Position numbers and translations under genes: made by a program
Assembly: GCA_018398765.1 (NCBI GenBank)
Contig: JAHBMJ010000256.1
Coordinates: 7,501-52,573 of the forward strand
DNA length: 45,073 nt
Direction of reading: 5' to 3'
Origin: Chromera velia
Lineage: Eukaryota > Sar > Chromeraceae
Notes under the pieces: generated by a model
What the model was told of the DNA's origin: nothing
Databases searched by the model: none
The model's input: only the letters and a program-made list of their open reading frames with translations
In this document: positions 11,050 through 34,781 of the stretch, one piece after another
How positions within the stretch are numbered: the first letter of the stretch is position 1
How the letters are laid out: each line of letters starts with the position of its first letter

Positions 11050-13976
11050 ATGACACGCAGAGCAGTCGCCCCAGGGGTGTGTGGGATTTTGCTCCTGATT
11101 CTCTTTGCACTGTCTGAACTGTCCGCTGGCGTTAGCCTTCCGCCCTCAGACATCGGTGACCGTTCAACCTGGAGTAACGATTTTACATCGAACTACAATG
11201 GCATAGCAGGAAGGTACAAGGACTACGCAGGATCCGTATGTGCAGGGCGTTACAGGGCGATGGGAAATTCGCAATGGTACGATCACGGCCAGCCCGACGA
11301 GCTGTCACCAGCCGCGGCATTCGACAGAGTGCCGGGGTCCTGGACGAACAAGGCCATGTGGCTGGATGCCGTTTTCACTAATCCAGGAACAAGTGCGAGT
11401 GAAGACACGAACAAGACACTCGTTCTTGAAATTCCTTGCTTGGTAACTTTAGACGCCTACAGTTTGCAATCAAGAACCGACACCAGTGCGGATACCGTAC
11501 CAAGTAAAATGGAGGTTTTCGGTTCTGATGACGGGGTTGGGTGGACTCTCCTGAGCAGTTTTACGGGGGAAATGGGTTGGATTGTGGGGGAGACGAGGAA
11601 CTTTACTGTGAGCAGCGCTCTGGGCCCTTTCAGCATTTTTAAGTTCGTGGCAAAGCGTATCGCCAGAACGGGCTCGAGTTACATGGCAATCTCCGACATC
11701 ATTCTCTACGCAGAGACCTGGACCGGTGAGGCTCCACAGACGTTTTTTATGTGTTCCTCTTTCAAAAAATTTATGCAAACTGGTCACCCATCTCTCTCAT
11801 TCAATTTCATGAAATATGGTGAATATTATATAGGTCCTGAACTTGTTAGAGACAATGTGCATGCGTACTGCATTGCAGTGGCGAAGACATTGTATGAATG
11901 AAATAGAGTGGATGGGCTCGTCTCCGTGCAACTGAGATCTGCTTGACCGTTTTGTTACGGTAGTACTTGAACGTTCGATGCGACATGCTTCCAAGCAGGA
12001 CGCTTTTCTGCATGCGCGAGCGGTACTGAAACAGACGGACTGTGTCAAGCAGAAAATCCAGCGGCGCCACAATCCAAACTTTTCAGCGAAGAGAGTGAAC
12101 ACACGAGTATTAAGGCAGGAGAGAGGAGCAAAGCATACGACTACTTCCTCTCGCCGCGTTCCTTTGTGCAATACTCCCCGTACTGCAAATAATCGTGTGT
12201 GCATGTATTAATTAACACATGCTGCAGCTGACGACGCTGATGAGTGCTCAACCGGAGCTCACAACTGCGATTCTAACGCTGTGTGCACCAACATGGCAGG
12301 CTCCTTCACCTGCGCCTGTGCGCTAGGATTCAGGGGAAGCGGGGTCTCCTGCAGCACTACCGTTTTGTCCATCCCCCCTTCCGACATAGGCACCGAACCT
12401 GAATGGATTTTGGACGAGGACGTTCTTTACAACGGGGTGAACACTTTATATCGGGACTATGCAGGAGCAACCTGTCCGGGGCGCTTTCGAGCAAAGGCCA
12501 ATAACATCTGGTATCGATACACTCACTCGACATCTCAACTGAGTCCTGCCCATCTTTTCGACCATGTCGAGGGCGGCTGGCCGAGCTACACCATGTGGCT
12601 GTCGGGACTGAGCAATGTCGACGGAACAAATTCAGCCACGGATGCAAATGAGACGTTCGTCCTTGAGGTTCCTTGCCTAGTTACTCTGTACTCCTGGGCA
12701 GTGCAGGCCCGGTCTGACACAAATGCGTACATGACAGTGAGCAAGATGGAAGTCTGGGGGTCGAGGGATGAGCAGAGCTGGACGTTTTTGGGATCCATCG
12801 AGGGTGTGACCGCCTGGACGCCCGCCGAGTCGAAAGAATTCAATGCTGTGCCGGGGATGGGGTCGTTCAGCTTCTTCAAATTCGTCTGTCAGAGAATAGC
12901 ACGTACAGGGAGCAGCTTTATGGGAATGAGCGAAATCTCGCTGCACGCCTTAAATTGGACAGGTCAGTCCGACAGATCACTTTCGAACATAGACTGTTTT
13001 GTGTGTTTGCAATGTGCACGTGCACAAGTTTTGCTTGCATGACACTTGCAAACTGTGCAGCATGATGATCATGGCAGGACGGAAAAAAGAAAAGGAGCAT
13101 GAAAAGGCCCTCAGAATGGTCATTTCTGCGGTTGCTTGGCCGTTCTCACTTTCTGCACAGGGAGGCTTAGCTTACTTTTTGCGTGTGTATGGCTCTTCTT
13201 GGATTTCCCCCCCTTTGTCACCTTTGCGCTCTGCAGGCGTCGACGAGTGTGCACTTGCCACTCACAACTGTCACATGAACGCGACCTGTGTAAACAACGC
13301 AGAAAGCTTCACTTGTGAGTGCAACATGGGAGTGGATGGAGACGGGGTCTGGTGCGAGAACCTCCTGGTGCCCCCCCCTCACATTGGGGCTGGTCCGACT
13401 TGGACTCATGACTTTAAAATCTTGTGGGGGGGTGTCCCGACACTTTACAAAGACTATAACGGCACGAAATGCCCCGGCAGATACCGAATCTCCACGAACA
13501 CGTGGTGGTGGGACTACGGGGATATCGATGACGCGACCTCAATTGCGGGAGCGTTTGACAGAATTCAAGGAACCTCGGCAGACGGGACTGTGTGGTTGAC
13601 TGCTGACAAAGACGCTGCGGGGTTGAATGACGCATCCGATTCAAATATTGAGATTGTCGTTGCGTTGCCGTGTTGGGTCCAACCCTGGTCATGGACAGTC
13701 CAAACTCGTGAGGGGAGCAATTCGTACATGCCGAGCAAAATGAGTTTCTGGGGGTCCTTGAATCTGATCACTTGGATTCCTCTGGGCTCATTTGAGTCAG
13801 AGCTGTGGTGGGCAGACAGTGAAATCCGAGAATTTGATGCGGTGAGAACCTGGTATTTCAATTATTTCAAATTCGTTGTGGAGAGATCAACCTCCTCGAG
13901 CACCAATTGGGTCGGGGCGGGGGAAATCGAACTGAAGGCTCTCAACTGGACTGGTGCGTCATTACGTCTACCTCTT

Positions 13977-14027
<51 letters not shown>

Positions 14028-14031
14028 GTAC

Positions 14032-14085
<54 letters not shown>

Positions 14086-17000
14086 ATGCCTATCTTTCTT
14101 TCTTTCTTTCTTTTTTCCTTTCTTTCGTTCTGAGAAGAGAAAAGAAAGAAACATATTGTCCATCAGTCTGTAGGTCTCTTTCGCATGATTTCACCAGTTT
14201 CCCTTGCTGAGCATAATCTCCTTTGGATTCAGTCTTCTCTCATAGTGGGTCTTCTCTCTTGTTGACTGGCATATGTCACGTAAGACTCACTGTCTTGCCG
14301 GAGTCGAAAAGAAGTTTTCTTTCTCGCGTCGATCGTCTTCGGGTCTTCCAAAAGCGGTTGACCGCAATTAACACAGCAACGTGCAATCACAAGGCCTTTT
14401 ATTTCTCATTCTTCGCTTTTTTTTTCTGTGCAGCTGACACTGCCAACGAGTGCGCTGACGGTAGTCACAACTGTCACGCGAACGCCACTTGTTTGAACAG
14501 TCCGGGTAGCTTCCTGTGTACCTGTGACAGCCTCTTCAGAGGCAACGGTGTGGCCTGTGACCTTGAGTTACTCCAGATCCCGTCCTCTGATATAGGGGCA
14601 GGGTCGACATGGCTGATTGATCTGGACACCAAATACTCAGGCGTCGTCAGTCTCTACACAGACTACGCAGGGAACGTGTGCCCCGGCAGGTACCGGGCCG
14701 GCGTCAACCTTGCCTGGTACGACTTTGGAAACACGGCCGCACCGACTCCTGCGGGCTTGTTTGACCGCCAGGTTGGGTCATGGGCAGCTAAAACGACCAT
14801 GTGGCTCGGCCAGGCTGGACAAGCGGCAGGGCTGAACAGTGCGTACGAGTCGAATGTAGAGCTCATGTTGGAACTCCCTTGCTTCGTGACTTTGCATTCT
14901 TACGGCATCCAGCCGAGGAGTGACAATTATCGCGATACAACACCCAGCAAATTGGACGTCTACGGCTCTACGGACGGCGTGCAGTGGAGGGTCATCGGGG
15001 GCTACTCGGGGCACAAACACCACATGTACGGGCAGACCTATGAGTTCGGGTTGAATGTCACAGAAGCGTTCAGCAAGTTCAAGTTCGACTATCGGAAGAG
15101 TTCTCAAACCAGCGATGGCTGGCCGAGCATCGGGGAGATTGAATTGTTTGCTTTCAATTGGACAGGTCCGTTGGCTGATGAAATGAATCCATTTGACGGC
15201 TATGAGAGCGTTCATGCATACCCTTCCTGACGGTACACAGAGCAGAGAGGATTTCCTTTCGTTGACTAGTCCTCAATCTCTCATTTGCTTAGATTGTTCC
15301 TGCGATTGAGACTTTTGTCCTTGATGTCAATATGCTTCTCTCTTGTTTGCAGACGACAACATGGACGAGTGCTCAAATGGGACACACAACTGCCACCCAA
15401 ACGCTACTTGCACAAACAACGCAGGGAGCTTCACCTGTAAATGCGGCCCAAGTTTTAGGGGCGACGGTGTGTCATGCGATGTCCAAATTATTCTGCTCCC
15501 CCCTGCTGACATCGGCACCGCCAGTTCATGGACGGAGGACGCCACTTACCCTCATGGAGGGTTGAACACTGAGTGGAAGGTATACACGGGGACACAGTGC
15601 CCAGGAACGTACATAGCCAAAGCCAGCGAGCCATGGTGGGATTATGGGCAGTCCGATTCCCAGGGACCTGCAGGGGCCTTTGATCGAGTCGTTGGCTCCA
15701 GTGCCGATAACTCGGCCTGGGTTACCGAATGCTGTGCTAAGGGTGCTGGAACAAGCAGCGCATATGATTCCAATCAGACCGTGTTCCTCTCTCTTCCCTG
15801 CCAGGCCTGGATTTACTCGTATGCCCTACAGTCGCGTTCGGATGGGTTCTCTACTCAGATGCCCAGCAAGATGAACGTCTACGGATCTCTAAACGAACAA
15901 AATTGGACTCTGATCGGTTCCTATGACGGAGAGATGAACTGGGAAAGGGGGGACACGAAGGAATTCCTGGTTGACCCTTCAGTGGGCGGATTCGTATTTT
16001 TCAAATTTGAGGGTCTGAGGATCTCCAAAACAACCGACGACTACATGGGAATCGGGGACATCCACCTGAATGCTCTCAATTGGACTGGTAGGTGAGCATG
16101 CACCAAGAACTGCCTGCCACTCTACGCCCTAACGCTCTTTCAGCTTCCTTGCTTTGTTCATTCGTTCGTTCGTTCGTTCCTTGTTTCTTTGGCTTTTTTG
16201 CCTGCCTGCCTGCCTGCCTGCCTGCCTGCTTCCTTACCTGCCCGACGGCCTCTTTGAAATACTTAGATGAAGGTAACGAACTGCATGGGTGATCTCTCTC
16301 TCTCTTGTGTGGGTGTGTCTCTCTCTCTCTTGTGTGTGTGTGTCTCTCTCTCTCTCGTGTGTGTGTGTGTGTGTGTGTATGTGTGTGTGTGTGTCCCACG
16401 TGCATGCAGAGCTTCCTGACAAGTGCGCGAACCAGACCCACAACTGCAATGTCAACGCGACCTGCAACGACACAGTCATCAGCTTCATCTGCACCTGCAA
16501 TCGAGGCTTCGAGGGAGATGGCGTGGCCTGTGCGGGTGAGCAGAAGACTCGAAAAGAAAGAAAGAAACATTCAGTAACAATCAATCAATTTCTGTGCATG
16601 TCTCTGTAGCCCTTTAACGCTGCTCCAAGTCCGTTTGGGTGCATTCACGCCCATCTGAATTCGCCCTGACAGACCTGGTTTTTGTTTCCACCTCAATTTG
16701 ACTCTGCCCAGCTGCATGCTTCTCGTTCGGCCTTTCTAGTTTTTCCTCATACACACTTTTGGGCTCGGTTTAGTACCTCAAGTGCACCTGAATTCCACAT
16801 CTCTTCCCTGTTGAGCACATATGTGTACAAACCCCGCGACACCTCTCTTTCCATTTGGATGTCCGTCAAGGCGTCTGTGTCTATGTGCATCTTTCTGCCC
16901 GCCAAACTCGATGGTGGTCTCTGTACGGATTGCACCTTCCACCGGCCAGTCTGCATGCCTCACTCGTGACTCCCTGCAAGTTGCAGACGCTGAGGAGTGC

Positions 17001-19853
17001 GCGACCTCCATTCACGACTGCCACAGTAACGCGACGTGCAACAACACATTCGGAAGTTTTGTGTGCTCCTGCAACGACGGCTGGATTGGAGACGGTGTGA
17101 GCTGCTCAAGTGAGTGCATGAGTGCATGTTTTGTAAGCTGATCAAGTGAGGGGAGAGAAAAAAAGGGCAACCAACGGACGAGGTCAACCGATTGGAAGAG
17201 GTAAAGAGAAGAGAGATCGCCATGATACACGGAGGGCTCGACAGAACCTTTGCTGGCTGCATGATTGTTTGATACTCATCCACCCATCACGCGTGTCCTC
17301 GCGAAGCTTTGAGGTGCTTTGAAAACTCCAGTTCAATGGAGGCTCATTCGAGGATATCTGACTTAGAAAGCACACAATGATATCGAAGGAATCAGGTCGA
17401 GACCTTTCATACCCAACCGATCTGGTGACATTGCACGTCTTCACTCAACCTCTTGTGTTACTGTGCTCTTTCTCTCTACCTGCAGACGTGAACGAGTGCA
17501 GCAACGGCACCCACAACTGTCATGGAAACGCCACGTGCGCCGACAACATCGGGAGCTTCGTGTGCAGCTGCAACGATGGGTGGACAGGTGACGGCGTAAC
17601 CTGCACAAGTGAGTCAGTCAAAGAGCGGGTTGCGTGTAAAGGGACGAGCACATGCTACAGATTCGTGTTCTGACTGAAGACAAGGAGACGACAAATGCAT
17701 CTGGAAGCAAAAACTACCATGATGAAGGCAAGTGTGTGACTGTGTCTGCAGACGAGGACGAGTGCTCTCTGAGCAGCCACGACTGCAACCAGAACGCCAC
17801 ATGCTCTGACAACATCGGAAGCTTTATGTGCTCATGTAACGACGGCTGGATTGGAGACGGTGTGAGCTGCTCAAGTAAGTGCGTGAGTGCGTGTTTTGTG
17901 AGTTATGCAAATGGGCGAAAAGAAGAAAAGAACGGCGAGATCAACGAAATGGAGGAGGTGGGGAGAAGAGAAATGGGGAGAAGATCTGAAGATTCACGGA
18001 GGGTTCGAGAGATTCTTCCTTTTTTTTCTACTTCCCGATTCTCGCTCTCGCAAACCTTTGAGGTTTTTAGAAAACTCCAGGTCAATGGAAGCTGATTCAG
18101 GTCAATTAGCGGTCGTGCAGAGATTAGAGGAACTGCCGGCTACGGACATGTAGGTGGCTTCAGTTTATCATTCATTCTCCCCGCTTCATGAGCTCTGATT
18201 CAAACGGCATACAATTACATGGAACGAATAAACTTGAAAGCTTCCAGACCAAACCGATCTGATACTATTCTACGCGAATGATTTCACTCATTCACGTATG
18301 CTGTTTTGCTTTTTCTGTCCACCTGCAGATGTGAACGAGTGCAGCAACGGCACCCACAACTGTCATGGAAACGCCACGTGCGCCGACAACATCGGGAGCT
18401 TCGTGTGCAGCTGCAACGACGGGTGGACAGGTGACGGCGTATCCTGCACAAGTGAGTGAGTGAGTGAGTGAGTGAGTGAGACGCGGAGCAGGTTACGTTT
18501 AAAGAGGCACGCACACGCTGTAGTTTCAACTTCATGCAAAATGATTTGATGCCATTGGTAGCGAGGAGGAGAATGCATCCGGCAGCCAAACAACACCATG
18601 AGGAAACCAGGCATATGTGTCATCATGACTGCAGATTCGGACGAGTGCTCTCTGAATACCCACGATTGTCAAGGGAACGCCACGTGCACCGACAACATCG
18701 GAAGTTTCGAGTGCCCCTGCAACGCCGGGTTCAACGGAACCGGGGTGTCCTGTTCTGGTACGTGAGTTTCTTTCTTTCTGTGCCAAACTTACTTATCCAG
18801 AAGCTAATGGTCAAAAAACATACTTGCAAAAAGGAATCGGGTGAAAGATGGATCCACAGAGAGCACCTGATCGACATAGTTTCTCTAATTCCAGACGAGC
18901 GCACCGCTTTTCTCAGAAAAGTCCACCTCCCTCCCGTGTAAAGAAATTCTGAAACGTCCAGCTCTCCTCATTTGTTGTCCGTGTCTTGTCGTGCCTTTGT
19001 CTCTCTTTTCAGACGAGGACGAGTGCTCATTGTTCACTCACAACTGCCATGCCAACGCTTCGTGCGCGAATTCTGTTGGGAGCTTCGCCTGCGAATGTGT
19101 GTTTGGGTTCTCAGGAAGCGGCGTTAGCTGTACAGGTCAGCAGACGCAGAAAGAAACTTGGGGGTCTGGAGAGAAGAAGGCTGTACAGTTGGGGAACAAG
19201 AGGTCAATAGAGCCGTTTTCTGACAACCAAAGATTCGCGCCAATTGTCTGCTGTACGACTCTTTTCTACTTGAGCTCCCTCTGCCCTTGACCTCCGTCCC
19301 GTATGGCGGTAGTCATGTCTAGGGGGGTGGTAAAGATATCCTCTCCATTTTTTCTCTGCTGCTCTTACATCATCCATCATACAGCAGTGTCTCAACAAGC
19401 TTTGCCCAAGAGTGCCCAGCCAGCAAAAATTTATTCGTATTCTCTGTAGCTTTCATCAATTGAGCATATGCCTCTGCAGACGACGACGAATGTCTGCTGA
19501 GTGTCCACAACTGTCACTCTAAGGGGGCGTGTGCGAACAGCGAGGGCTCATTCTCCTGTGGGTGTAACTCTGGATTCTCTGGAGACGGCGTCTCGTCCTG
19601 CATTGGTCTGTCCGTTTGTCTCTTAGTCAAGGAGGCTGGGGGCTGGGGGGGTCAGTTTGTGTGTTCTACGTCCAGGAATGTAGATGGACTGGGCGGGGGA
19701 AAAGCAGAACATGGACGCAGCAAATCTCCAGGCGTGACAATCAGTGAGAGCATTCACATGAAATTGGGATGTTCGTTGTTTGAGTAGGTAGGTGCTTCTC
19801 TGGCAACACCTGTGAGCTCGCTATGCGTTTTTCGTGAACGATGCAAAGGGACA

Positions 19854-19891
<38 letters not shown>

Positions 19892-22800
19892 CCTCTTTCT
19901 GTGCAGACGTCGACGAGTGCACACTTGGAGCACACAACTGTCACGTCGATGCAGCCTGCCAGAACACAACAGGGAGCTTTGTGTGTGAGTGCAACTCACC
20001 TCTGGTTGGAGATGGCGTGGAGTGCGACGGTGGGTCGATCGACCGATCTCCCTGCATGCAAAGTGTAATCTCGTGTATTCTTGGATAGTCTACCTTTTGA
20101 AAACTTTTAGTGTCATAATTACAGGGTCACTTCAAGCATGCACACGCACCCGGCTGCTCTGGGGCTCACCTTTTCGATCGCAGTGACGGAAGGATTTGGC
20201 GTTCAATGGTTGGATCATAAAGTCTCATCTTCCGTTGACATCTTCGTTTGTGATTACATTTGGATGCATTCTGAGTTTGCCCTATTCATCTGCTGGAAGA
20301 ATTTCAGTGCCAACCACATACATCAAGGAATTTTCTTTCTCAATCTCTTCTTCTTTACTCGCGTTTTCACACGGGGCCGTTCTCATTCACGAATGCCTAC
20401 ATTCGTTCTGCTCTGAGGTTTGTGCTTCCACAATCAGGACGTGTATGGATTTGTGTGCCTGCTGTGACTGGTGTTCTTTTGCACATTTTTGGCACCCCCT
20501 ACCGAATCGACGCGCTTGCAGAGGCTCCGCTTTTTGACGTCAGTCTTTAATTCAGAACAGTCTGAGACTGAAGCCCTTGGGTTTCGCATGTTTCCTTCTT
20601 TCCCTTCGTTCCTAGTTTTGTTTTGTTTTTCTCTGTGTCAAGACCGAAGTCTTTTGTCGACTATGTGTGATGTAGACTTCTTTCGTACCGCGTTCGCGTG
20701 CGAGCAGGCCGTCCGGACTTCGGTGCGAAGTCTGAATCGGTTGGTCTGCATGTGATTCATTCATTCAATCAGGTGGCCGATATCTGTAGCGCCAACTCGA
20801 CTGCCGGCGACATTCAGGAGAACTACAACGCCGAAAAAGCCCGGATCCAGGCCTCTGGAGTCAGTCAGTCAGTCAGTCAGAGATGGGGGGGGGGAACAAT
20901 TGACCTCTACTGTGGAACGAGAATGTTCTTTGTACTATTCTGAAGGAACGTCCCGATGGTGGGCTCTTTGCTTCTTAACTTCTGAAGAGTCTCAGCTAGA
21001 GTGAAAGCGCTCGAAGTGTTTTTGTTGTTTTCGGAGCAAAATCGTCGTGCGGTCGCTGGCCGTTGCATCTGCGAAAAATTCGATTCTTGCATGATCAGAG
21101 CAGGACATGAATTCCTTTCCCCCTGCTGTGTCCTGACTATTTGATTGCAGGCAGAAGCAATTGCCTTCAGTCTCCTGGATACCAAATTTGAAGCATGCCT
21201 CGAGAACCTTCCCAAGGCAGAACAGGTGACCGTCCTCACAGAAGTGCTGGAGGAGACCATGGTGACAACCCCGGTGTTTCCGGTAAGTTGTGTATAATCT
21301 TAACTCTTTCTTCACTGGTCGTGGACACAAAAGCGCTTAAAGAGGAGTCACCCTTCATGCAGAAGAACAGTTTGTTTTGTTTTGGGGATTTCGTCGTACT
21401 TAAAAGCAATGTTTCTCATTGTCATTTGCCATTTTGAACTCAAGCAGCATTGGAGAAAACAATTGCTTTCCCTGCACAAACAATCCTCACTGTGCTTTCG
21501 ATCCGTGGATGACTGCATGCCACGATTCGATTGATTGTACTTGCAGGAAGATGATGCCGCCGCCCTTGCTCTTCTTGTCTCGCTGGACAAAATCGGTGAG
21601 TGATGGATGCATTCATTTTTCTTTCTGCATGTCTTCAGCAGCCTCGAGCGAGTACCCAGCGAGCTCTGCATGGGGAAGTGCGTAGAGATCTGAATAAGGT
21701 TTCTGCGACGTGGATTCTCTTTCTCGCATCTGAGTGCAATCAATCGAAGAAGGAAGTCTTGATGTCATCTTGAGGCCCAGCGCGTCTCTTTCGACGCATC
21801 TGTCGCCCCTCTTTCTGCATGCTCTTGCAGGCGATCTGATCTCGGAGCTCTCACAGACGGGGGAATCCGTCCAGGTGGACAGCCCCGACATGACGATGTT
21901 GGTCTCCACATTCGACCAGGCCACACTGGTGTTCTCTGCAGGGACTACAGACGTCTCAGTTTTCATGGAACTCAATGGTGCAGAAGATATCCAAGGTACG
22001 TGGGCGAAATCGTTAAGGAGAGGCACAAATGCGACGAGGCGATGGAGCCTTACTCGTCGTAGACTTTTTATCTTTTTTGAATTTTGGACAGAAAACGGAG
22101 GGATCGGACAGCAAGCAAGAGACTGACCGGATCACGCAGAAAGGAAGGGGGCCGTCATGTCACTTTTCTGCTTGAGCTCTTGAGTCTTTGGGGCCAGCCG
22201 TTCAATGACCTCCCATCGTGCGCAAAGTGATGCCTGCAGGTGAAACAGTCCAAGGAGGGTTCTCGGAGAGATCCCCTCCCTCTTGGTCCTCTCTGCTGGG
22301 AGCAATGGACCGATCAGAACGTCATTTTGCTGAGCAGCAGGAGGGAGAGGAAGGAAGGCGGAGCCTCGTGCTGCTAACGACGGTCGACAACCCGCACCCT
22401 TATGCAGCAGGGAGAACTAAGGAAGGAGGGTTCCTTCTCGAAGGGGCAACCAGGTTGGTTGGTTCACTCTTTTTTCTTTCTCCATCTGTTTCTCTCCACC
22501 AGTGTCTCTGTCTGCTTCGGACAACAGTGACTGGAGTCTCACTCTCTCTCTGTCTCTCACTCACTCTCAACTAATTGGTTCCTGCAGATATGTCCGAGTG
22601 CAAGCGCGACAGAGACGACAGGTAGTGGGGTCGGGGCGGATCCCTCAGGTCTCCCTCTCCTCCTTTGGGGGCGGAGGTTCCCGTGCGCAGGGGGGGCGAT
22701 CAAGCGGTAGGCGGCGGCTTGCGGAGATCAAAATGATTGACTCAGCGGAGCAGCTGGAGGTTCCCGTTGATGAGGCGAAGGAGACGGCGGGGGCCCTGAA

Positions 22801-25800
22801 GATCCGAGCACAAGGGCCGGACGCGTCTGCAATGCTGCAACAGCGGGGGCTCCTCGAGTCTTCATGGGAAGACCTCCACCTGGGTCTGCGGGGAGGGGAG
22901 TGGGTCCTCGAGTGCGCTCAGCTGGACGTGCAGCAGGAACTGTGGACGAACGCAGGTCAGCAGACACGAAAGGAGAGCAGTGCACTACCGATGCTTTACC
23001 GTGCTGGACAAACGGCACACCGCAATCGTTGGAGTCTGCTGTCAAACTGATGAGTCGGAAGCAAGTGGGAAGGCTTGTTCGCCCATGCAGCATGGGTTCT
23101 CTTACTTGATTGATCTCCCTTTGATTCAGAATGGTGATTCAGATTGGTTTACCAGGTGATTCAGAATGCAAGAAGGAACGTGTTCTGTGGGACAAATATG
23201 AATGAAATCAAATCTCTTGCTTTCATCGGTTGCAGGTTGTCGCTTTTACCTCTCAGAAGCTGAGGGCGAGTGGTGGTGTGCGTGTGCACTCCGGTCCCTT
23301 GCGACGACGCTGATTGCAGTCCAACGGGTTGGTGTGGAGGAAAGGGGGAGCTTTCATTTGCCGGTTGGGATGTGTTGTTTGAGTGGGGTCCCTACCCAGT
23401 CTGATGGAAGTGTTGCTGCCTATTGTCATGTGCGTCCTATGAGGTATTTCTTTGAGGCGGCAAGGCAAGAAGAGTCTTTTTTTTGCCAACTTTTTTTGTC
23501 CACTTTGGGGGGACACAGTCGAGAGCGGCCTGTTGTGGGTGGTCGTTTCCAGAGAAAAGTGTCTCACGGGGATAAGAATACGGAAAGACTGAAAAAGCCT
23601 CTCGCAGCAGAACCCTTCTTTGTTTTTTCTAAGACTCTCTCTTTTTCTGTCTTTCTCTCTTTGCAGTACATTCCACCCCCTCGTCATCCTGCCGTGAAGG
23701 GAGAGGCTGCGTGGGCTCACGAGAAGACCATCGACTGGCTTCCTGGAGCCGTAGCTGTTCTCTGGTTGTGGCTGCTTGTTCTCGCCCTTCTTGGCGGACT
23801 TGGCGTCCTCTATCTCTTGTAAGTTAGTTTCTGGAATTCAGATGAAGCCCATACTTTTCGTTAGTCATCTGTCTAAATCTATACTTTTTTGCTCGTTCTT
23901 TTGTTTTTGAAAACACTTTCTTGTTCCGCTTCCTTATGTTTTGCTCGTAGGAAGAGAAAAAAGGTCTGAAATGCATTCGTTCCTGATCTGTCCCTATGCA
24001 GTGCCATCCGGGCAGAGAGAGACCTGAGTCCCAACCTCACATCGCTGGACCCGCAACCTGACCAAAAGGCGCTGCTGGAGAAACAGAGCCAAGCACCCAC
24101 AGACAAACTCGCCTCTGGCAGTCTTTCAAAGACTTCAGCAGTCACGAGGGAAGTATTTGACTCTGAGCGTCACAGAAGGAGGCTTGGGGTCTTCTTTACC
24201 CCCAGGAGGGTGGTTGGGTTTCTGGAGGCGCGGGCGTGGATGTCCAAACGCGCACACAGAGACTCAAAGGGGGGGGGGCAGACGACTTCTGACAGCACGG
24301 TCCGTCACGGAAGTCTAGGAAGGCTGCGAGCTCTGGTCTCTCAGTCCCCTTGCGCCGTTTGCTGTCGGCGACTCCTTCTCCGCGAGGAGACGCTGGCGTT
24401 TGTGGACGCCCGCCAGCTCTCGCGGCTTCGTGAGTTGAATCGTCTGAAGCTGTCCGCAAAGATGAGAGGTTACCTGGATGGTGGAGAGGCAAGGCAGCGG
24501 CTGACGTGGCAGCAGTTGGATGCAGAGCTCGCGAGCAGAAAGTATGACATGGGGCTGCAGTTCAAGAGCCAGGCGTGGGAGGCAGAGGAGGGAAGGAATA
24601 ATTTTCTCCTCCCTGCAGATACGTGGCAAACGTCGGTGGCGACTTTCACGACTGCCCAGACCTTCCAGTCCGCACGCACGCAGGCAGAGGCAGAGTCAGA
24701 GTCTCGGTCAAAGAGCAAAAATCCTTTTTCCCAGTCTGCCTCGTCCTCCTCTGTCTCTTCCTGGGAGTCCACTCAAACAGAAGGAGAGGAACAGAGACCC
24801 CTATCTCCAAGTAAGCGTCCTGTCCAGCCTGTCGGGTTCGTGGAGTCTCCTGAGAGCGGTGGAAGAACGAAGAAGAAAAGTGCCGACGTGGACGCCAGCT
24901 CGCCCCTGTCTTCACAGACTGCTGACGCCGCATCACCCCTCCCACGTCCTCCCCGGTGGCTCGAGAATTCGCCTGCGGGGGCGCTGCTGTCCCACCTCCG
25001 TGCATTTAAGCACTCCGTGATGGAGGGTTTATCCCCTTCAGCCAAGAAGGGAAGTCCCGTCAGCGGCATTGCAGAGAAAGGAAAAGGGGAAGACTCAGAG
25101 AATGACGAAAGTCTGAGGAGCCGGGGTGAATCATCAGATACAGAAAAGTCGATCCAATCAGGCGAATGGAGTGTTGTAGAAAATCTGGAGCACTTGAAAT
25201 ACATTCTCTTTCGCAAGGACGGAGAAGAGGAGGGGGAAGACAAAAAAGAAGGAAAGGAAGATACAAATGGGGCAGAGAGTAAAAGAAGCGAGGCGTCTCT
25301 TGCTCTGGCCGAGCAGGAGCCCGAAAAAGAATTGTTGGAAATTCCAGAAAGCGGGAGCAAAAAGAGTGGGGATGGAGAAGACACGGCAGACCTTGAAATA
25401 GAGGAGGTAGAAGAGGAAAGCCCCCTGGTAAGAGGAAGAGAAAGCACAAAGGGCCAATCGTCTCCATGGAGAAAAGCCTTCGGGGGATCCCTTTTTTTCC
25501 CTAACCCTTCAGGTTTAGACCCTCCTGCGTCTAGGTCTGTCCCCCACACCCCCAAGACCCCAAAGGACCCATCGGAGGTCCTTCGCTCCCTTCCCTCGGA
25601 AAAGCAGCCGGAAACCAAAGAAGCCAGAAAGAAAAGAAAGGAAGAGCGCCTGCTGATGAAAGCGCTGAAGTGCCAGAGAGAGGTGCTCTTCAAGACAATC
25701 GAGGGCATGGATGAAAAGAAGAAGCACGGACAGGGGAGGTCAAAAATGGCTATTGTCGCACCTCAAGGGTATGCTAGACCTGGAAGGCTTCCCCTCAGGT

Positions 25801-27734
25801 AAGTCAGATACCATGGATAAGTTATTTTCTTGTTCATGGGTAGTTGCCAGTGTCCTTTCAGCTTTGAGAAAGAGAGACTTCTGATTTCGTGTGAGCAATT
25901 TCCTTCTCATTTTCATTTCTTCTGGCCAGGACCAGAATTTGGATTGTGTTAAGTACGACCGGGATCTATCACAGGCATCGATATGCCTTCCTTGAACGGC
26001 TGTCTGCAGGTCACGCTGGGTCCTTTGGGGCTTTGTTTGGCTTTACCTGTCAGTTATAGAGAGAGGCAGTAACAGAGATACATGGGGAGAGACAGAAAGA
26101 GAGAGACCTGCGGGGTACTTTTGCTTTGTGTAAAGTCCTGATCGACCTGAGGTGAATGGTATTCTCTCCTTTGCTTTCCCTCTGCACCTTTGGCGTCTGG
26201 AGTGGAAAACCTTCTCTTGGCTTTCGGTAGCACCCTTTGAAGAGAATCTGCTCCCTTTGCTCTGATTGACCGCTATAGAATCTTTCACTTTTTTGACCGT
26301 CATCCTCCCCCGCCTTTTATCTCTCTCTCATTGCAGAAAGAGCCTGGACACCGGGCACGTCATCCTTCGTCTCGTCAATTGGCCGCGTGTGTGGCTGCAG
26401 TCAGATGCGTCGCCCCTGACCGACACTCTACTCTTCATTCTTCGACTGGTTGGCACCTTCTGCCTCTGCCTCATTCTTAACGCAGCGACAGTTCTCGTCG
26501 GCGAAACCGACGACTTCCACACACCGCACACGCCTGTCACACTGACCACAGCCCCCCGCCAGTTCCACCTGCCGTCAAGTTTAGACCTCCTCTCCTTTGC
26601 CCCTGCTGCGGCAGTGAAGATTTTGATCTCATTCCTGGCCTTGTTGCTTGTCGTGGGGTCTCTCTTGAGACCGCTGTGTGCGCGTGTGTGGAGCGAGGAA
26701 TCGCTCTTTGAAGACCTTCACGTCGTCAGACAGAGCCCCTCTGATCCCTCTGAAGAAGGGGAAAGGACAGACCAGAGCCCCTTGGGGCGGCTGTCCCTGC
26801 CTGTCGGTGCAGAGGGAAGGGATCGGTCAGAGAGGCCTTTCTCGGCCCCTGACAGAAAGAGCACTCACAAAGAAACACGACGCAGCTCTCTCGCACGAGC
26901 AGAGACCAAACTAGCAGAGGAATTCTCGTCCGGTAGGCTGCTGTACTACAACTTTGGAGAGGCAATGAGCATACGAGCGCGCCCAGTGAGACTGCCACGC
27001 GCTGAGTGCGCACACCGGTTCGTTGCCAGACGGAATCTGGAGGTTGTGGTGCAGAAGCTCTTGTGGGTGGCGTGTGGGGTGGCTGCACTTGTCTACCTCT
27101 CTCTCCTCGCAGTGGCAACGGCGGAGTGGAAAGCGAGTCGGGAATCGGCCAATCGTGAAGAGTGGGGGGGCCTGAGAGGAAATCAATTCTGCAGCAGGCG
27201 GCCGTCGGTTGTGCTCTCTGAGCATTCGGTCGGCATTTTGATCTTCTTCCTGCTGGAGATTCTCTGGTGCTGTCTGCAGGCGCTCTCGCGGGCGATGCTG
27301 CTCAGGTCTGTCGCGGATGGTGGGGAGTCCGAAGGGAAGTGGGTAGAGACACTATTTTGGTTGAGGTGTCGTATTGTTGTAAGGTTGATGAAAGGGCAAA
27401 CAACATGCTGGAAGTGGAAGATGCCGCTTAAAAAGGGACAGGCATAGTAGACACGTCGCGGCGAGCGTCTATCGCTTGTCTCGATCAAGAGGTCTGGTCG
27501 CAACTTTTGCATCCACTTTGGTTTTCCCTTTGTTTTTCCAATGTCTGCAGGTTGTCTCTGAGATCTGGGCTCGTCCGGAGGTTTCTGAACTGTTTCCCTC
27601 GGGCGGCGATGTTCTCGGACCTTCACCCAGAGGCAGAGGTCAAATTCGGAAAGGACGTCGTCAAAGCGCTCGACGCCGTCCCCGCCTCCAACTGGATTGT
27701 CCCGCCTGAGAGGTTCGATTGCCTCGCAGACTAA
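11050..27734 (+). CDS. Gene C: polycystin-1-like discoidin/EGF receptor, 5 TM, no pore
   Basis: Exons: 11050-11725, 12228-12962, 13237-13953, 14434-15165, 15353-16087, 16410-16535, 16987-17109, 17486-17608, 17752-17874, 18329-18451, 18635-18757, 19013-19135, 19480-19605, 19907-20029, 20522-20538, 20773-20859, 21151-21282, 21547-21595, 21831-21995, 22240-22453, 22588-22955, 23236-23327, 23667-23818, 24002-25798, 26337-27305, 27551-27734 (about 2977 aa). All phases agree. Order: signal peptide (1-27), five discoidin-like modules, thirteen EGF modules, GAIN-like region (about 1570-1910), degenerate GPS, TM1 (about 1970-1992), a 600-residue Ser/Glu/Lys-rich cytosolic loop, TM2-TM5, short tail. 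GPS-TM1-large loop-TM2/3-loop-TM4/5 is the first half of polycystin-1 topology. The pore segments TM6-TM11 are absent before the stop. Likely a cell-surface adhesion or mechanosensory receptor (inference). An alternative to the 17-nt exon is an acceptor at 20708. Confidence 0.85.
11127..16087 (+). other. Five discoidin (F5/8 type C)-like modules of gene C
   Basis: Exons 1-5 each carry one ~200-residue module. Recurrent landmarks are IPPSDIG or PPADIG at the start, YxDYxGxxCPGRYR, an AFDR-type loop, an LEIPCLVTL-type strand with a single Cys, PSKMxVxGSxDxxxW, and a final (L/F)NWT sequon just before the splice site. The order of strands and the FDR and GSxDG..W signatures fit a galactose-binding-like discoidin fold, which in other proteins binds glycans or lipids. 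The family assignment rests on motif pattern, not a profile search. Modules 2-5 are each preceded by an EGF domain encoded in the same exon. Confidence 0.65.
13973..14110. repeat. (TC)n-(TA)n-(TG)n-(TTTC)n compound microsatellite
   Basis: The compound repeat begins about 20 bases after the exon 3 donor of gene C and fills the first part of intron 3. Open frames through it (Ile/Tyr, Cys/Val) are repeat translations. Confidence 0.92.
16158..16400. repeat. (TTCG)n, (TGCC)n, (TC)n, (TG)n repeats in gene C intron 5
   Basis: Several short tandem arrays lie in series between exons 5 and 6. All are pyrimidine-rich or TG-rich on the sense strand and run almost up to the acceptor at 16409. Confidence 0.9.
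19857..19896. repeat. (CT)n tract upstream of an acceptor
   Basis: About 40 bases of CT repeat occupy the polypyrimidine-tract position before the exon 14 acceptor (CAG at 19904-19906). The repeat probably serves as, or grew from, the splice-site pyrimidine tract. Confidence 0.85.
20522..23327 (+). other. GAIN-like region and degenerate GPS of gene C
   Basis: Exons 15-22 (including the 17-nt exon 15) encode a helical part followed by beta-rich sequence ([14 protein letters not shown] and following). This arrangement is seen in GAIN domains of polycystins and adhesion GPCRs. It ends with WTNAGC ... WWCACALRS ... TLIAV, directly before TM1. The spacing of Trp, Cys, CxC and the hydrophobic end match a GPS motif, but the autoproteolytic His-Leu-Thr/Ser position reads Leu-Arg-Ser. 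Self-cleavage is therefore doubtful. Identification as GAIN is from position and pattern only. Confidence 0.5.
23667..27734 (+). other. TM1-TM5 and cytosolic parts of gene C
   Basis: TM1 ([20 protein letters not shown]) is in exon 23 of the 26-exon model. One 1797-nt exon (24002-25798) then encodes a hydrophilic loop with CAVCC and long Ser, Glu and Lys tracts. I see no PLAT domain in it, although polycystin-1 has one here. TM2 (about 26430-26500) is preceded by [10 protein letters not shown] and ends LNAATVLVG, similar in position and character to TM2 of polycystin-1. TM3 (about 26610-26675), TM4 (about 27055-27120) and TM5 (about 27230-27300) follow. The C-terminal exon adds about 61 hydrophilic residues and TAA at 27732-27734. 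Confidence 0.65.
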
Positions 27735-29069
27735 CCGACTGACTGACTGACTGACTGCGTGGAGACGTCAGGCTTCTTACGATCGAGAGAGACCAAACAG
27801 ATAAGATATGGACAAACACAGAGCCTACGCGGCTCACGCGAAACTACAGAAAATGCACTCCTTTATGTCTCTTTATTGAGGAAGAAGACGACAGAGGGGA
27901 TCCCGAAGCGCTGTGCATTTATGGGGGGGGAAGATTTCATAGAAAAAGGGGGTGGGGTCGCAGGACGGGAGGGAATTGGGGTCTCGAGGGGCGAGATCGA
28001 TTTGTGGATGGACAGTGAGTGCGAGTAAGTTGTCAATGAGTAAATTTGAGTTCTGCAAGTCGTTTTGCTGCGCACATAAATGCGGCTGGGTAAGGTTCCT
28101 TCGTCGCTCTTTTCTCCACGCAACCACCTACTTTGCTGACTCTGAAAAAGTGGAATGAGTCGCCGCGCATTCCCTTTCACCTACTTTGCAAAACTTTTCG
28201 AAATAATTGAATGTCTAAATTCCCTTTCTTGCTGGACTCACACACAGTGGAGGGCAAGCTCCATGTTTCACTTTGATCAAATTCTGCGTCTGCAGACCTG
28301 ACTTCGAATGTGTACAGACCTTGGTGAGAGTGAAATCGGCTAACCGTTGAGCTCTCGCGTTGCTGACTTGCTCTTTCATCTATGCTTTCACGTTGTGATT
28401 GTATTTAAATTTGTGCTCACTTGAGTCCCCTTGAACCACTGGCATTCGTTTTAGTTGGTCAGATCTTCGGATCGATTTGATCAGTGCAACGCCAGTCAAT
28501 ACTGAACGTTACTGTACGCAATCAGATACGAATACATACCATCATCTCACCCGTCATTGGAAGCAATGAGGTTCATAAACACGTAAAAAGTACGAAAACT
28601 CTTCATGATAGCAAATTAAATCTTCAAAAATTGTATGTATTACTTCAATCACGTACAGCATAAATTGAGAATGATAAATAAATTATATAGTTACGTACAT
28701 TGTTGCCAGTGATTTAATTTTTCAAATCTAGTTCAAAATTTGCTTGAAAAACTAGCTGAAAATATGGCAATAAAAATTTAAATGAAATAGATTATTATTA
28801 TATAAATTTATATCTCTTAAATACGAGGCTAGATATAAAATATTGGAAGTTCTACTACTCTGAAGTTTTTGTCTTTGTTCGGTCACATAAGATAAAAAGA
28901 TATATCTAGAGATATATAGTAAATAAAAGAAAAAACTGGCCGAGTCCATTTTTTTTTTCCTTCCTACTATGTATGCGATGCCTACTTGTAGACGGCTGCT
29001 AGACGGTTCTGCAGCGAGTTCTCTAATAACACTAGCACAAAAAAAAAAAAAACAATAATTTTTTTAATT

Positions 29070-29135
29070 GATCTCTGCATACTACCAGTTATAAGCTCGA
29101 ATAATCGATCTCTGCACACTACCAGTTATAAGCTC
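29070..29135. repeat. 37-bp tandem repeat, about 1.8 copies
   Basis: The unit starting GATCTCTGCATACTACCAGT at 29070 recurs at 29107 with one mismatch over 29 bases. Confidence 0.85.
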
Positions 29136-29185
29136 TAACTTTTTTGATACTCTACTCAGGCTACTCAAATTAACTATAGTAGTGT

Positions 29186-29347
29186 GTAGTATCAAAAAAC
29201 ATTTAAACAGAGTTGTTAAGTCCCGACAAACCTAAGTACCGAAATCCGATACCGACCCCCCCTCTGGTACCGAGGTACCGAAAGTACCGAGACTTAACAA
29301 CACTGCATTTAAAAATTATGTATTGATTCATCGTTTTTTGATACTAC
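29186..29347. repeat. Nested inverted-repeat (MITE-like) element
   Basis: A perfect 15-bp inverted pair (29186-29200 and 29333-29347) encloses a second 18-bp pair with two mismatches (29208-29225 and 29288-29305). The inner segment carries at least five TACCG words and is GC-richer than its surroundings. CATTTAAA flanks the inner element on both sides, possibly a target duplication. No protein is encoded. A MITE-like origin is inference. Confidence 0.55.
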
Positions 29348-29607
29348 AATGTAACTACATTTTTAAAAAATGTGAATATTAAAATGACCAGAAGTTATCA
29401 TTACTTCATGATACATACTGACGCACGATATTAAAGCAACTGAATGATTTCATGTATAAAATTGCGCAGTAAAAACCTTTTTGGAAATTGGGAGCAAAAA
29501 GGAATGAAACATATAACGGTTTCCACCAGTCCTATGCATTGACAGTGAATTTGACACCTAAGTCACACCTTACATCTTTTCAAATAAATTTTGATGTCTT
29601 CCCGATT

Positions 29608-32600
29608 TTAGCCCCCTTTGATCACAAATTGAATTTTTCGTTTGTCACGAAGCTCCATAATCTGAAGGGCATTCGGAAGGTCGTTCATATCCCATCTGCA
29701 GAAAGAAAAGAAAAATACTCTACCTTGTGCGTCATTCGACCAGATCCGCTCAATCATGCCATAAACTCCGCACATCGTGAATGCAATTGCATGTCAAAAG
29801 CGGAGAGACACCACTCATGCAGAAACACATTCTGTACCCAAAAATTGCTTTCCTTCTTTGCAGCAACTCCGAAAAACAATTTTCGAACAAAAATCAGCAA
29901 GAGAGGCATTCAACCGACCAGCCAGCCAAATGAGCAACCAACAGCGGTGGCCACACCAACAAACTTGACTGCTTGCGGCGACAAAAAAAAGATACGAAAA
30001 AACGTGACTTCTCCATTAATTATTTCCACATGTCCGGCCACAAAAACAAAAGAAGGACCGACCTCTCCTTGGCGGACTCCGGGCTATCGCAGATACCCGA
30101 AGTGACATGACGCAGGACGACTCGTCTCTCAGCTTCCTCTCTGCACACATGCATCTACAGATCCCTCTGTCGGTGCAACACCATCCGATTCAACCAAGAC
30201 AGACAGACATGCATCAAAAGAGAACAAAGAAAGGGCCATGCACCTCCTTAATTTTACGGCTTGAAAGAGCAGCATGCGCATCAGCGAAAGACAACAAACC
30301 TAAATCGATTGCCCACAGACTCGATAGACAGCCAGACGCCAGCAGCAGGGAGAAGGTCGAATCCAAACCTGCATATACAGTCTTTCACCAGCCTTTCTGA
30401 CTTCTTATCTGCCGCAGAACTCCTAGCTTGACTGCTGCCTCACACCAGCAGTCTCTCTCATCCATCAATGGATGGCCGTCCTCTAGCTTGCCCCGCCCGC
30501 GTTGATCTCATTAGGAAAAAAAAGGTAAACGATCGAGGCAGGTAGATGCAGACAGACACATTTACATGCAGATGAAGGAGCTCACACGGGTGTATCCACA
30601 AAGACCGGCACATCGATGAATCGTCGGACGCTCCCGACCCAGGGCTCCTTCTCGAGAAGTAAGTAGTTGCCCTCACAAAAGACCAGTCTGCAAATGAGAA
30701 TGCGAGTGGAAAGTCGGAATGAGAAGAAACTCGGAATGCAAGGTTTGGATATTTTCGGGTTCTCAGGACCATGATGGGGTTAGGGAGTCCATTTCCTGTC
30801 CACACGCGCAAATGACTCCTCACAAGAAGGATCCCCCCCCTCCACGCCCTCTCTCCCCTCCTATAGAAGGCAAGAGACAGTCTCCCCTCCTATAGAAGGC
30901 AGGAGACAGAAAAAGAGGAAGAGAGAGAGAGAGAGAGAGAGAGAGGGGAGAGAGAGAAGGTGCTCCCTCACAAGTGTTCAGGCCGGACAGTCACACCGCC
31001 AGGCGAGGGATCCTGCACGGAAGTAGAGAAACAGGGCTCTCTAAGATCCGCAAATTGAAGTCAAGGGTCGGGTCGCGAGAACAAAAAATAACAGAACGCA
31101 GGATGCAATAGAGACGTCATGCATGAAAGGGAAATCAACACAACGGGAGCGAAGGCGAGGCTCAATACATTCATCAATGATTGAAGTCCAGCACAACCAC
31201 AGAGAAAGGTTGGAGAGCTGTAAAAGGAGAATTGGCACTAGTCTTCGAAAAAAAAAAACTGCTTCCACGAGATGGAGGGAAAGGAGGCCATCAACTCATC
31301 TTTTCAGAAGACAGGAAACGGCTCAAGCAGCTCGAAGCACGGGAGGGATCTGTAAAGGGAGGGGTTGGCCGCAAGAAGGGGTCGTCAGGAAAGGCGCTTG
31401 CGCTTCGAGTGACATTGGGATCTTCCACACAGATAACAGCCACGCCACTGTTGGCAGAAACCTGGAACAGAGCGCTTGTCACCTCTGTCTTTCTGTGTAT
31501 GTCGATGCATCTCTGTTTGCACAGAGAAGGCGTTTGTGCATTCTATATGCGTGCGAAACGAGTGTTGTGTACCTTTAGTGCGTGGTCGAATGTGGGAGCT
31601 TGAACGACTGTCCCTGTATCTTCCTTGGACTCCCCACTGCTTCGAAGCTGTTCCAGCAAAGCCCTGCAAATATCTCCCTCCACACATCAACGCACAAGAA
31701 CCATCAGCACCCGATCATCATCTTCTTTTCCGTAGATGCTCTCATAAAGAATCCCATCCTCTCTGACACAACTGATGCATTCTGTTTTGACCACATGAAG
31801 GAAGACGTTGGTAAATGTATGGATCAATGAGTGAACAAAGAGAGACAGAGAATCAACTCCTGCAAAGAACAAGGAGAATGGAGGTGAAAGGAGACCTGAG
31901 AGAACGAGGCAAAGAAAGAGAACCTCAAAAAGAGGAAGGGAAAAAAGGGAAGAGGGGTAGGAAAAGACCGGGGGCGAGAGGAAAGATACAGACTAGAACC
32001 CATTGAGACGTCATCTGCCACTTTTGTGTTCCCTCCCACTCTTTGAGTCATCCTTCTCTCTTCTTTCTGACTGACTGACTGACCCGAACCCCTCAGCATC
32101 GAAGGTCCACTCAGATCCCCGTCTCCTGTGGGCCTCTTCGGGATTTTCCATTCTGCATTCATTCTCCATACATGCACGCACACATCAACGGTGTGTGCAC
32201 ATGCTTCATCACGGCCTTCGTGCAAGGACATGGGAGCACAGACAGAAGGAAAAAAGCAGAGAGGCAACGAGGTGATGGTTGTTGAACTGTCTCTGAAAGG
32301 GGTCTGGGGGGGGGCAAAGAAGGGACCTGTGTGTGTGAAGAGTGAAAAACCAGCTGAACGCTGCACCCCAAAAAGATGGGGGGACTGGAGGGGAGGGCGT
32401 GCGGAGTGGGGAGCTGACATATGGGGAGTCTTCCTGCCTGTGCAGCCTTTCCTTGGGCCTCTCTGGGCCGGTTCGCTCTCTGTGTGCGTCTGTCTCCTTT
32501 TTTGACTTTCTTTTGCTCTGCCATTTAGAATGCTTCTCTTCCCTGCATACACTCCCCTGCTCCTTTTTTTCTCTGTGTGAAGCTGTCGTTGCTGTCAGTT

Positions 32601-33952
32601 CGACTGACCTGTCGAGCTGCGCCCTGGAGTAATGGAATCCATCCATGGGCACCACCACTGAGACCTCTGCAGACAGACAGACGCCCAAGAGGGAAAGGGG
32701 CTGTCTGAAGAAAGAAAAAGAAGAAGACACAGCAGAACAAAAAAGTACGGCGTACAAACGACAGGGGGGCGTCAAGTGGGAGCGGCAAGACAGGACGATA
32801 CTCTAGGCATCCAGAAACGCCCAGCTGGAAAAACGGTGAAGTTATAGTGGGAATGGACAAACGAATACAGCAGAAGAGAGACACGGCAGGATGTGGATGC
32901 AGAAGAAACAGAACAACACAAAAAAAGAATGGGAAAAACAGAGAATAATTCAATGGATGCTCGAACACTCGAATGGATCCACCCATCTTCAAACAACCTA
33001 AATCGAGCTGCAGCGCCCCCTCCCCTCCTTCCCTTTTCAAAATAGAAAGGCAACGAGCTACTTTCTCACGCCAATTATCCCCACCTCTTGAAGAGCCTTC
33101 GTTTCCCGTCATGTCCTCTTTTGCCTTCGTCTCTTTGAACCAAGCATTCACCTTCTCACAAACCGAACCGGCCAGTGTGGACTTTCCGCTCCCTGAGAAA
33201 GAAGAAGATGAGGGGCACAAGAGCATGGACAGATCTTCATATCAGCATTATTCTTACGTCCATAGAGGGAGACGGCCTGGTCTGTGCATGCATCTACAGA
33301 AAGAATGAGCAGGGGGAAGCGGGAGAGCGGGAGAGCGCGTACCCCTATGCACATCTTGATATATACTCAACTCCAAAATACTTTTACAAACGCATGCAGG
33401 TGCACACAAGAGTGAATTCCGTCTACTTCGGGGCTTTATCTTCAAACGCAGTTCAAAAGATCCAGAACAAGAGCATGGGGATCGTGAGTGCCCTCGTGAC
33501 CTCTTGAAAAGAAAAGCAGTCGACCACCTTCCAAAATTGTCCGACGGCTGTGCATGTATCTGCTCGCTTTACATCCGCCACAACAGCACTTTCTTTGCCT
33601 TCCGACCACTCATGTACTCACCGGGAATTCCCGCAATCCCAACGATAACTCTCTTCCCAGATTTGACGGCATCCGCGCAGAGCGTCTTCATCTGGTCCAC
33701 GAACACTTCTTCCGTGCATTCTGCTGGTCCGCCGTCTCCTGTACCATCACCTTTGCCGTCTCCGTCTCCTAGCGACAGACTCATCCCTCCTCGACCTCTT
33801 GAATGCCAAAACTCTGGGCTTCTACTGAGTGGACGGAGAAAGCCGTCCACTCTGATCGTCCGTAGACGGCCTGGGGCTGCCGAAAGAAAATCAGCTATCG
33901 GCGTCGACGGCGTGAAAATTGTGAAGACAACCAAGACAGTCCGGAGCGTCAT
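29608..33952 (-). CDS. Gene D: P-loop small-molecule kinase (PRK/uridine-kinase superfamily, YggC/FrcK-like)
   Basis: Nine minus-strand exons: 33952-33622, 33192-33085, 32666-32609, 32152-32084, 31663-31573, 31012-30972, 30687-30586, 30140-30063, 29695-29608; 966 nt, 321 aa, every phase consistent. In order: Walker A GIAGIPGSGKS split by intron 1, PMDGFHYSRAQLD, RRGSEWTFDAEGF lid-like motif, PTFDHALKDP, CEGNYLLLEKEPW, FVDTP, RRVVLRH and NDLPNA. This series is characteristic of phosphoribulokinase/uridine-kinase-like kinases, which phosphorylate a sugar, nucleoside or vitamin-like substrate with ATP. The substrate cannot be read from sequence. The first in-frame ATG gives a hydrophobic N-terminus (LRTVLVVFTIFTPSTPI) and an Arg/Ser-rich stretch before the kinase core. 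That suggests secretory or bipartite plastid targeting. Confidence 0.9.
30852..30909. repeat. 29-bp tandem duplication, two copies
   Basis: Two adjacent 29-base units beginning TCTCCCCTCCTATAGAAGGC differ at one base. They lie in the sixth intron of gene D next to a (GA)n run. Confidence 0.9.
30913..30960. repeat. (GA)n microsatellite, sense-strand (TC)n
   Basis: The GA run lies just downstream (in sense orientation) of the donor of exon 6 of gene D. It is pyrimidine-rich on the sense strand. Confidence 0.9.
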
Positions 33953-34781
33953 TACAACATGCAGCAGCCAGCCAGGAAAGAACCCATTGGGGTCTGAGTC
34001 ATTGCAAGTGACACAACATGCTGAAACCACGAGTACCGGTGAGTCTCTCCATGTGACTATGTGTGACTTGCACAACTTCTATAACACGGAGATGCTGGCG
34101 GCTGTGGACGGATATCATCATGGACGATCGGCCCCCGGGGTATCTTCTGTCTCGTATACGTGCGGGTGCATGCATGCCAGACTTAATTTCTCATCCCGTC
34201 TCGCCTCGTCTCCTCTCGATCGTCTCACACAGACTTCGTCTCATATCGCGAGGCCTCTAGCACTATATGTTTCGCCTCAGATCACGTCGTATTATGTCGT
34301 GCACGCCTGCTATGTTTTGATAGTGCGAGGCTATGTCATAGGCATTAATTGTTAATGTGTATGTGTCATAAGGGCTCTAAAGCTTCTAAGCATATCCAAG
34401 CAGAACAGCTTACTATAGCTCACTAGAGTTCTCTATAAACAGCCAGATACGTGGTTAATTATTGCATATTATTGCACTAAGTGAACTCTGCTATAACTTT
34501 TAACATATCTAAACATATCTCATCATCAGTTTAATACTGACATTTTTTTCTCTTTCTATTCTCTGCTAGTATATGCTAGGTAGACATACTTACTCACTCA
34601 CGCCCTTTGTCATTCACTTACATAAACATACAGTGCACTTAAACGCACTTATGCACTAAGAAGACACGGGCTTCTTATTCATTAAAACACGTATTTATCA
34701 CAAATGGACTGCGCAGGTTGCATAAACACAGACAAATTCAGTTTTAAACGCATTTGAGATACCATCAAAAACGGGCGTAAG
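33953..34781. other. Intergenic spacer between genes E and D
   Basis: This is the 5' flank of gene D and 3' flank of gene E. The part from about 34300 to 34740 is AT-rich and frame-poor. GCATGCATGC occurs near 34167, on the promoter side of gene D. No gene is visible. Confidence 0.5.

What the first reader, a model, noticed from the sequence alone, without database searches (positions are those of the whole stretch)
11050..27734. A polycystin-1-like receptor with a discoidin/EGF ectodomain that stops after TM5 and has no channel pore
The spliced frame gives signal peptide, five discoidin-like modules, thirteen EGFs, GAIN-like region, GPS-like motif, TM1, a large cytosolic loop, TM2/TM3, a loop, TM4/TM5 and a short tail. 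In established polycystin-1 proteins GPS-TM1-PLAT-TM2-5 precedes the TM6-11 pore-like half with its TOP domain. Here the protein ends after the TM5 equivalent, and the ectodomain uses discoidin and EGF modules instead of PKD/REJ repeats. This looks like a free-standing polycystin-1 receptor half in an alga, which could pair with a separate TRPP channel. I know of no described family with this exact order.
Basis: partly seen in the sequence, partly recalled or inferred. Interest (0 to 1): 0.88.

Follow-up and report, generated by a model that had tools for sequence, protein, structure and literature searches.

The report
Five-pass GAIN receptor family in Chromera
This gene of the alga Chromera velia encodes a very large surface receptor with a GAIN domain, as found in adhesion receptors and polycystin-1, but with five membrane spans and no channel half, and it belongs to a large gene family in this alga.

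Summary
The gene lies at 11050-27734 (+) in Chromera velia CCMP2878. A published model of this gene ends at the same residues. One search gives 43 exon matches = 37 loci of the TM2-5 module; of 20 other loci fetched, 18 carry the same tail after TM5 and the other two run into a contig end.

Best reading: an expanded family of probably uncleaved five-span GAIN adhesion receptors with exchangeable ectodomains, laid out like the front half of polycystin-1. Descent from PKD1 and pairing with a TRPP channel are unproven.

The parts
11050..11725 (+). exon 1: signal peptide and discoidin-like module D1
   Evidence: open frame, GT donor; hydrophobic N-terminus
12228..12962 (+). exon 2: EGF1 + D2
13237..13953 (+). 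exon 3: EGF2 + D3
14434..15165 (+). exon 4: EGF3 + D4
15353..16087 (+). exon 5: EGF4 + D5 (F5/8C E 4.6e-4 on its own)
16410..16535 (+). exon 6: EGF5
16987..17109 (+). exon 7: EGF6
17486..17608 (+). exon 8: EGF7
17752..17874 (+). exon 9: EGF8
18329..18451 (+). exon 10: EGF9
18635..18757 (+). exon 11: EGF10
19013..19135 (+). exon 12: EGF11
19480..19605 (+). exon 13: EGF12
19907..20029 (+). exon 14: EGF13
   Evidence: inferred from P0003 and P0004 and from the phase
20773..22453 (+). exons 16-20 (20773-20859, 21151-21282, 21547-21595, 21831-21995, 22240-22453): GAIN domain, helical part and first strands
   Evidence: tblastx with paralogs; GAIN fold of the same stretch of P0003
22588..22955 (+). 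exon 21: GAIN domain, second part, ending in the first half of the GPS ([15 protein letters not shown])
23236..23327 (+). exon 22: second half of the GPS (CACALRSL) and last GAIN strand; H-L-T/S absent
23667..23818 (+). exon 23: stalk and TM1
24002..25798 (+). exon 24: 598-residue cytosolic loop; part 24131-24700 well conserved, the rest Ser/Glu-rich; no Pfam domain
26010..26048 (+). exon 25: mini-exon before TM2 ([13 protein letters not shown])
   Evidence: tblastx in paralogs; present in P0003
26337..27338 (+). exon 26: TM2, TM3, loop, TM4, TM5
27551..27734 (+). exon 27: conserved cytosolic tail and stop

Best explanation
It is a member of a Chromera family of GAIN-domain adhesion receptors with five membrane spans. 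The discoidin and EGF modules form a long, glycosylated arm that binds an extracellular partner (matrix, cell wall or another cell; inferred from the domain types). The arm is anchored in a GAIN domain whose GPS keeps the Cys/Trp core but has lost the H-L-T/S cleavage triad, so the two halves most likely stay covalently joined (cleavage loss read from sequence, not assayed). Binding or pulling force is passed through the last GAIN strand and the stalk to TM1 and the TM2-5 bundle (inferred by analogy with adhesion GPCRs and polycystin-1), and is read out by conserved cytosolic parts: the block at 24131-24700 and the tail at 27551-27734 (inferred from conservation). There is no channel half in the protein. 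Paralogs keep the membrane part and change the ectodomain, so the family looks like a repertoire of surface recognition receptors.
Confidence: 0.6

Rival explanations
1. One reading: a true polycystin-1 (PKD1-family) receptor half that lost TM6-11 and its PLAT domain, and works by pairing with a separate TRPP channel.
For: Same order GAIN - TM1 - long first cytosolic loop - TM2-5. PKD1-family members with fewer spans are known: sea urchin SpREJ1, 8, 9 one, SpREJ2 two, SpREJ7 six (PMC1934368, passages). PKD1L1 and PKDREJ also lack HL(T/S) (PMC9672506, passages). A TRPP-type TOP exon flanked by hydrophobic segments exists in the genome (C1117, E 1.3e-11).
Against: No PLAT, REJ or PKD repeat found by Pfam. 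TM2-5 profile and model gave no polycystin. None of the 7 PKD_channel or 3 Polycystin_dom exons lies on a contig of the 37 loci.
Confidence: 0.2
2. A relative of the apicomplexan/chromerid CRMPs (cysteine repeat modular proteins, EGF-like modules and nine spans), with fewer spans.
For: CRMPs are large surface proteins with EGF-like modules and many spans, and many diverse CRMPs are reported in Chromera (PMC9815656, passages).
Against: Nine spans there, five here; no GAIN is mentioned in the CRMP passages I saw. CRMP sequences were not at hand, so no direct comparison was made.
Confidence: 0.07
3. A degenerate adhesion GPCR that lost two spans or whose other spans were missed.
Confidence: 0.06
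4. Gene-model artefact: the channel half exists but its exons were missed downstream.
For: No RNA data seen.
Against: Stop and tail conserved in paralogs; one hydrophobic segment only (a 26-residue frame) on the + strand from 27735 to 34000; no PF08016 or PF20519 match on the window's contig.
Confidence: 0.03

Closest known systems
Polycystin-1 family (PKD1, PKD1L1-3, PKDREJ; sea urchin SpREJ1-10)
   Same: GAIN domain before TM1, isolated TM1, long first cytosolic loop, TM2-5, adhesive ectodomain; some members lack the HL(T/S) triad and some have fewer than 11 spans.
   Different: No PLAT, REJ, PKD repeats, TOP or TM6-11 found; TM2-5 not recognisably similar; discoidin/EGF ectodomain.
Adhesion GPCRs
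   Same: EGF-type ectodomain and GAIN domain; best structural matches are their GAIN domains.
   Different: Five spans instead of seven, with a 598-residue loop between TM1 and TM2; GPS triad lost.
Apicomplexan and chromerid CRMPs
   Same: Large EGF-bearing, multi-span surface proteins of the same wider lineage, diverse in Chromera.
   Different: Nine spans; no sequence comparison was possible.
Ectocarpus Esi0130_0068 (REJ + GPS, 6-7 spans)
   Same: Algal receptor-like protein with GPS before several spans (PMC4700764, passages).
   Different: Has a REJ domain and a weak polycystin channel match; no EGF hit in the text ('egf' 0 occurrences).

Membership tests
Polycystin-1 (PKD1) family | GAIN domain upstream of TM1 | tested here: met
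   Model of P0003 2464-2886 matches GAIN structures; low-confidence model, paralog not window protein
Polycystin-1 (PKD1) family | GPS with cleavable HL(T/S) | tested here: not met
   LRS in the window; L-R or I-R in 16 of 16 readable loci; cleavage itself not assayed; PKD1L1 and PKDREJ also lack it
Polycystin-1 (PKD1) family | PLAT domain in the first cytosolic loop | tested here: not met
   No PF01477 in the loop at E up to 5 nor in P0001-P0007. The genome-wide PLAT search was silent, but so were its controls; fold of the loop not predicted
Polycystin-1 (PKD1) family | REJ domain and/or PKD repeats | tested here: not met
   Pfam scan of P0001 lists EGF-type and F5/8C families only; PKD1L3 also lacks REJ
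Polycystin-1 (PKD1) family | 11 spans, TM6-11 with TOP and channel homology | tested here: not met
   Five spans; no PF08016 or PF20519 on the contig; no hydrophobic exons downstream. SpREJ members with fewer spans exist
Polycystin-1 (PKD1) family | TM1-TM5 similar to PC1 | tested here: inconclusive
   Profile: no polycystin at E up to 10. TM2-5 model: no Foldseek match at E 0.001, 17 chains in the second look; TM1 was not in that model
Adhesion GPCR | GAIN domain | tested here: met
Adhesion GPCR | seven-span domain after the GAIN | tested here: not met
   Five spans, TM1 and TM2 598 residues apart; no 7TM Pfam match
CRMP | conserved core of two EGF-like domains and nine spans | tested here: not met
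   Five spans; definition from passages of PMC9815656
CRMP | sequence similarity to the CRMP core | not tested
   No CRMP sequence at hand
F5/8 type C (discoidin) domain | Pfam PF00754 above cut-off | tested here: met
   P0001 36.2 bits, P0003 43.1 bits against 28.2; single modules of the window below cut-off

The most novel reading that the evidence does not exclude
A third class of GAIN receptor beside adhesion GPCRs and polycystins: GAIN - TM1 - long cytosolic loop - TM2-5 - conserved tail. It forms in Chromera a repertoire of at least 37 loci with interchangeable ectodomains, and its blocks are kept alike by gene conversion between distant loci while other parts diverge, as one would expect of a surface recognition system.
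Probability: 0.45. Interest if true: 0.75.

Novelty: new variant of a known kind. Interest (0 to 1): 0.6.

Why it matters
GAIN domains are mainly known from adhesion GPCRs and polycystins. A large alveolate family that couples a GAIN domain to a five-span membrane part without a channel would separate GAIN signalling from both the seven-span fold and the polycystin pore. It would let one test what the GAIN-TM1-loop unit does alone, and bears on how channel and receptor halves of polycystin-1 came together. It also shows a sizeable receptor repertoire in the closest photosynthetic kin of the apicomplexans, of which the three protein searches made here found relatives only in Chromera.

Full report
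What it is. The window lies on contig C255 of a 178-Mb assembly. The organism is Chromera velia CCMP2878: UniRef/EukProt hold a 3010-aa protein, P0001, that is 97% identical over 97% of the queried part and is a published model of this gene.

Gene model. Frames and splice sites give 14 exons for signal peptide, five discoidin-like modules and 13 EGFs, all joined in phase 1, and 12 more from the GAIN region to the stop. Comparison with paralogous loci confirmed the frames and ends of the later exons. One junction did not fit in phase; published models of paralogs P0003 and P0004 carry a short EPPVFE/EAPLFA piece there, and a 17-base exon with the right phase, 20522-20538, lies in the window. 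The result is 27 exons and 3001 aa. P0001 differs at four small places noted under the observation check.

Ectodomain. The five modules are 36-47% identical to each other. Pfam's F5/8 type C model is above its cut-off in P0001 and in paralog P0003, but the three single-module pieces of the window that I scanned stay below it. Thirteen EGF_3 stretches.

Membrane part. Hydropathy gives five spans. Sequons, 30 outside and 1 in the loop, fit an outside N-terminus and an inside loop. The loop between TM1 and TM2 is 598 residues without a Pfam match; 24131-24700 is its well-conserved part. A 17-sequence alignment of TM2-5 found no polycystin among solved chains. Its predicted model, pLDDT 67.9 and pTM 0.62, had no significant Foldseek match and only middling rows in the second look. 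So similarity to PC1 TM2-5 is neither shown nor excluded.

The end. The tail exon ends in a stop at 27734. In 18 of 20 fetched loci a matching tail follows TM5; in L026 and L030 the gene is at a contig end. Genome-wide, 26 tail exons were found at E up to 1 (10 at E up to 1e-3), 24 of them on contigs of the 37 loci. Nine of nine published models, P0001-P0009, end 0 to about 80 residues after TM5. On the + strand only one hydrophobic segment occurs from 27735 to 34000.

Family. 43 exon matches make 37 loci, the window included; the count is a lower bound. Membrane part and GAIN are kept, ectodomains vary: F5/8C + EGF, RCC1 repeats + EGF (P0004), Sushi + EGF (P0008). Three protein searches found nine proteins, all Chromera; because of their word filter this does not show that the family is absent elsewhere.

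Partner question. The genome has 7 PKD_channel and 3 Polycystin_dom exon matches and 14 GPS exon matches, none on the contigs of the 37 loci. The C1117 exon has a TOP-type domain between two hydrophobic segments and is the best TRPP candidate. Some PKD_channel matches may be other channels; the C3867 one looks to me like a voltage-gated type (my reading). No PLAT was found genome-wide, but the controls were silent too.

Verdict. The layout is that of the front half of polycystin-1, and the GAIN domain gives that analogy substance. But four tested PKD1 features (cleavable GPS, PLAT, REJ/PKD repeats, 11 spans with channel half) are not met, although single PKD1-family members lack one or another of them. 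I therefore describe it as a five-span GAIN receptor that may work like polycystin-1's receptor half, not as a polycystin-1.

Noticed in passing
window 22240-27734 against L023 (C2130): Mosaic identity to the closest paralog on another contig: 99% of 720 bases at 26501-27220, 95% in the tail exon, 93% at 24131-24700 and 85-90% in exons 22240-22955, but 55% in the TM1 exon, 51-53% in the rest of the loop and mostly 37-66% in introns. This looks like gene conversion in patches between loci.
   Followed up: partly
C1117:53527-54165 (L043): Exon with a polycystin TOP-type domain (PF20519, E 1.3e-11) between two hydrophobic segments: a likely TRPP channel of Chromera.
   Followed up: partly
14 contigs, e.g. 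C859:31728-31853 (L046): Fourteen exons with GPS motifs above Pfam's cut-off; the nine I read have H-L-T. What these genes are was not worked out.
   Followed up: partly
C3867:43789-44529 (L006): A PKD_channel match in a long open frame that reads, to my eye, like a repeat of a four-domain voltage-gated channel rather than a polycystin.
   Followed up: no
P0004, P0008: Paralogs with the same membrane part but RCC1 repeats + EGF (P0004) or Sushi + EGF (P0008) outside.
   Followed up: partly
window 32212-33241 (-) and 37044-38432 (-): Minus-strand frames that recall a P-loop kinase (GSGKST, PMDGFHY) and an M16-type peptidase; recalled motifs only, Pfam gave nothing at E 0.01.
   Followed up: partly
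C3267:10842-10994 and C3462:24842-24973: Two tail-exon matches on contigs that are not among the 37 loci: probably further family members.
   Followed up: no
C3014:4988 onward (L056): Family TM2 exon cut by a run of N; the reported 1771-aa open frame is that gap.
   Followed up: yes
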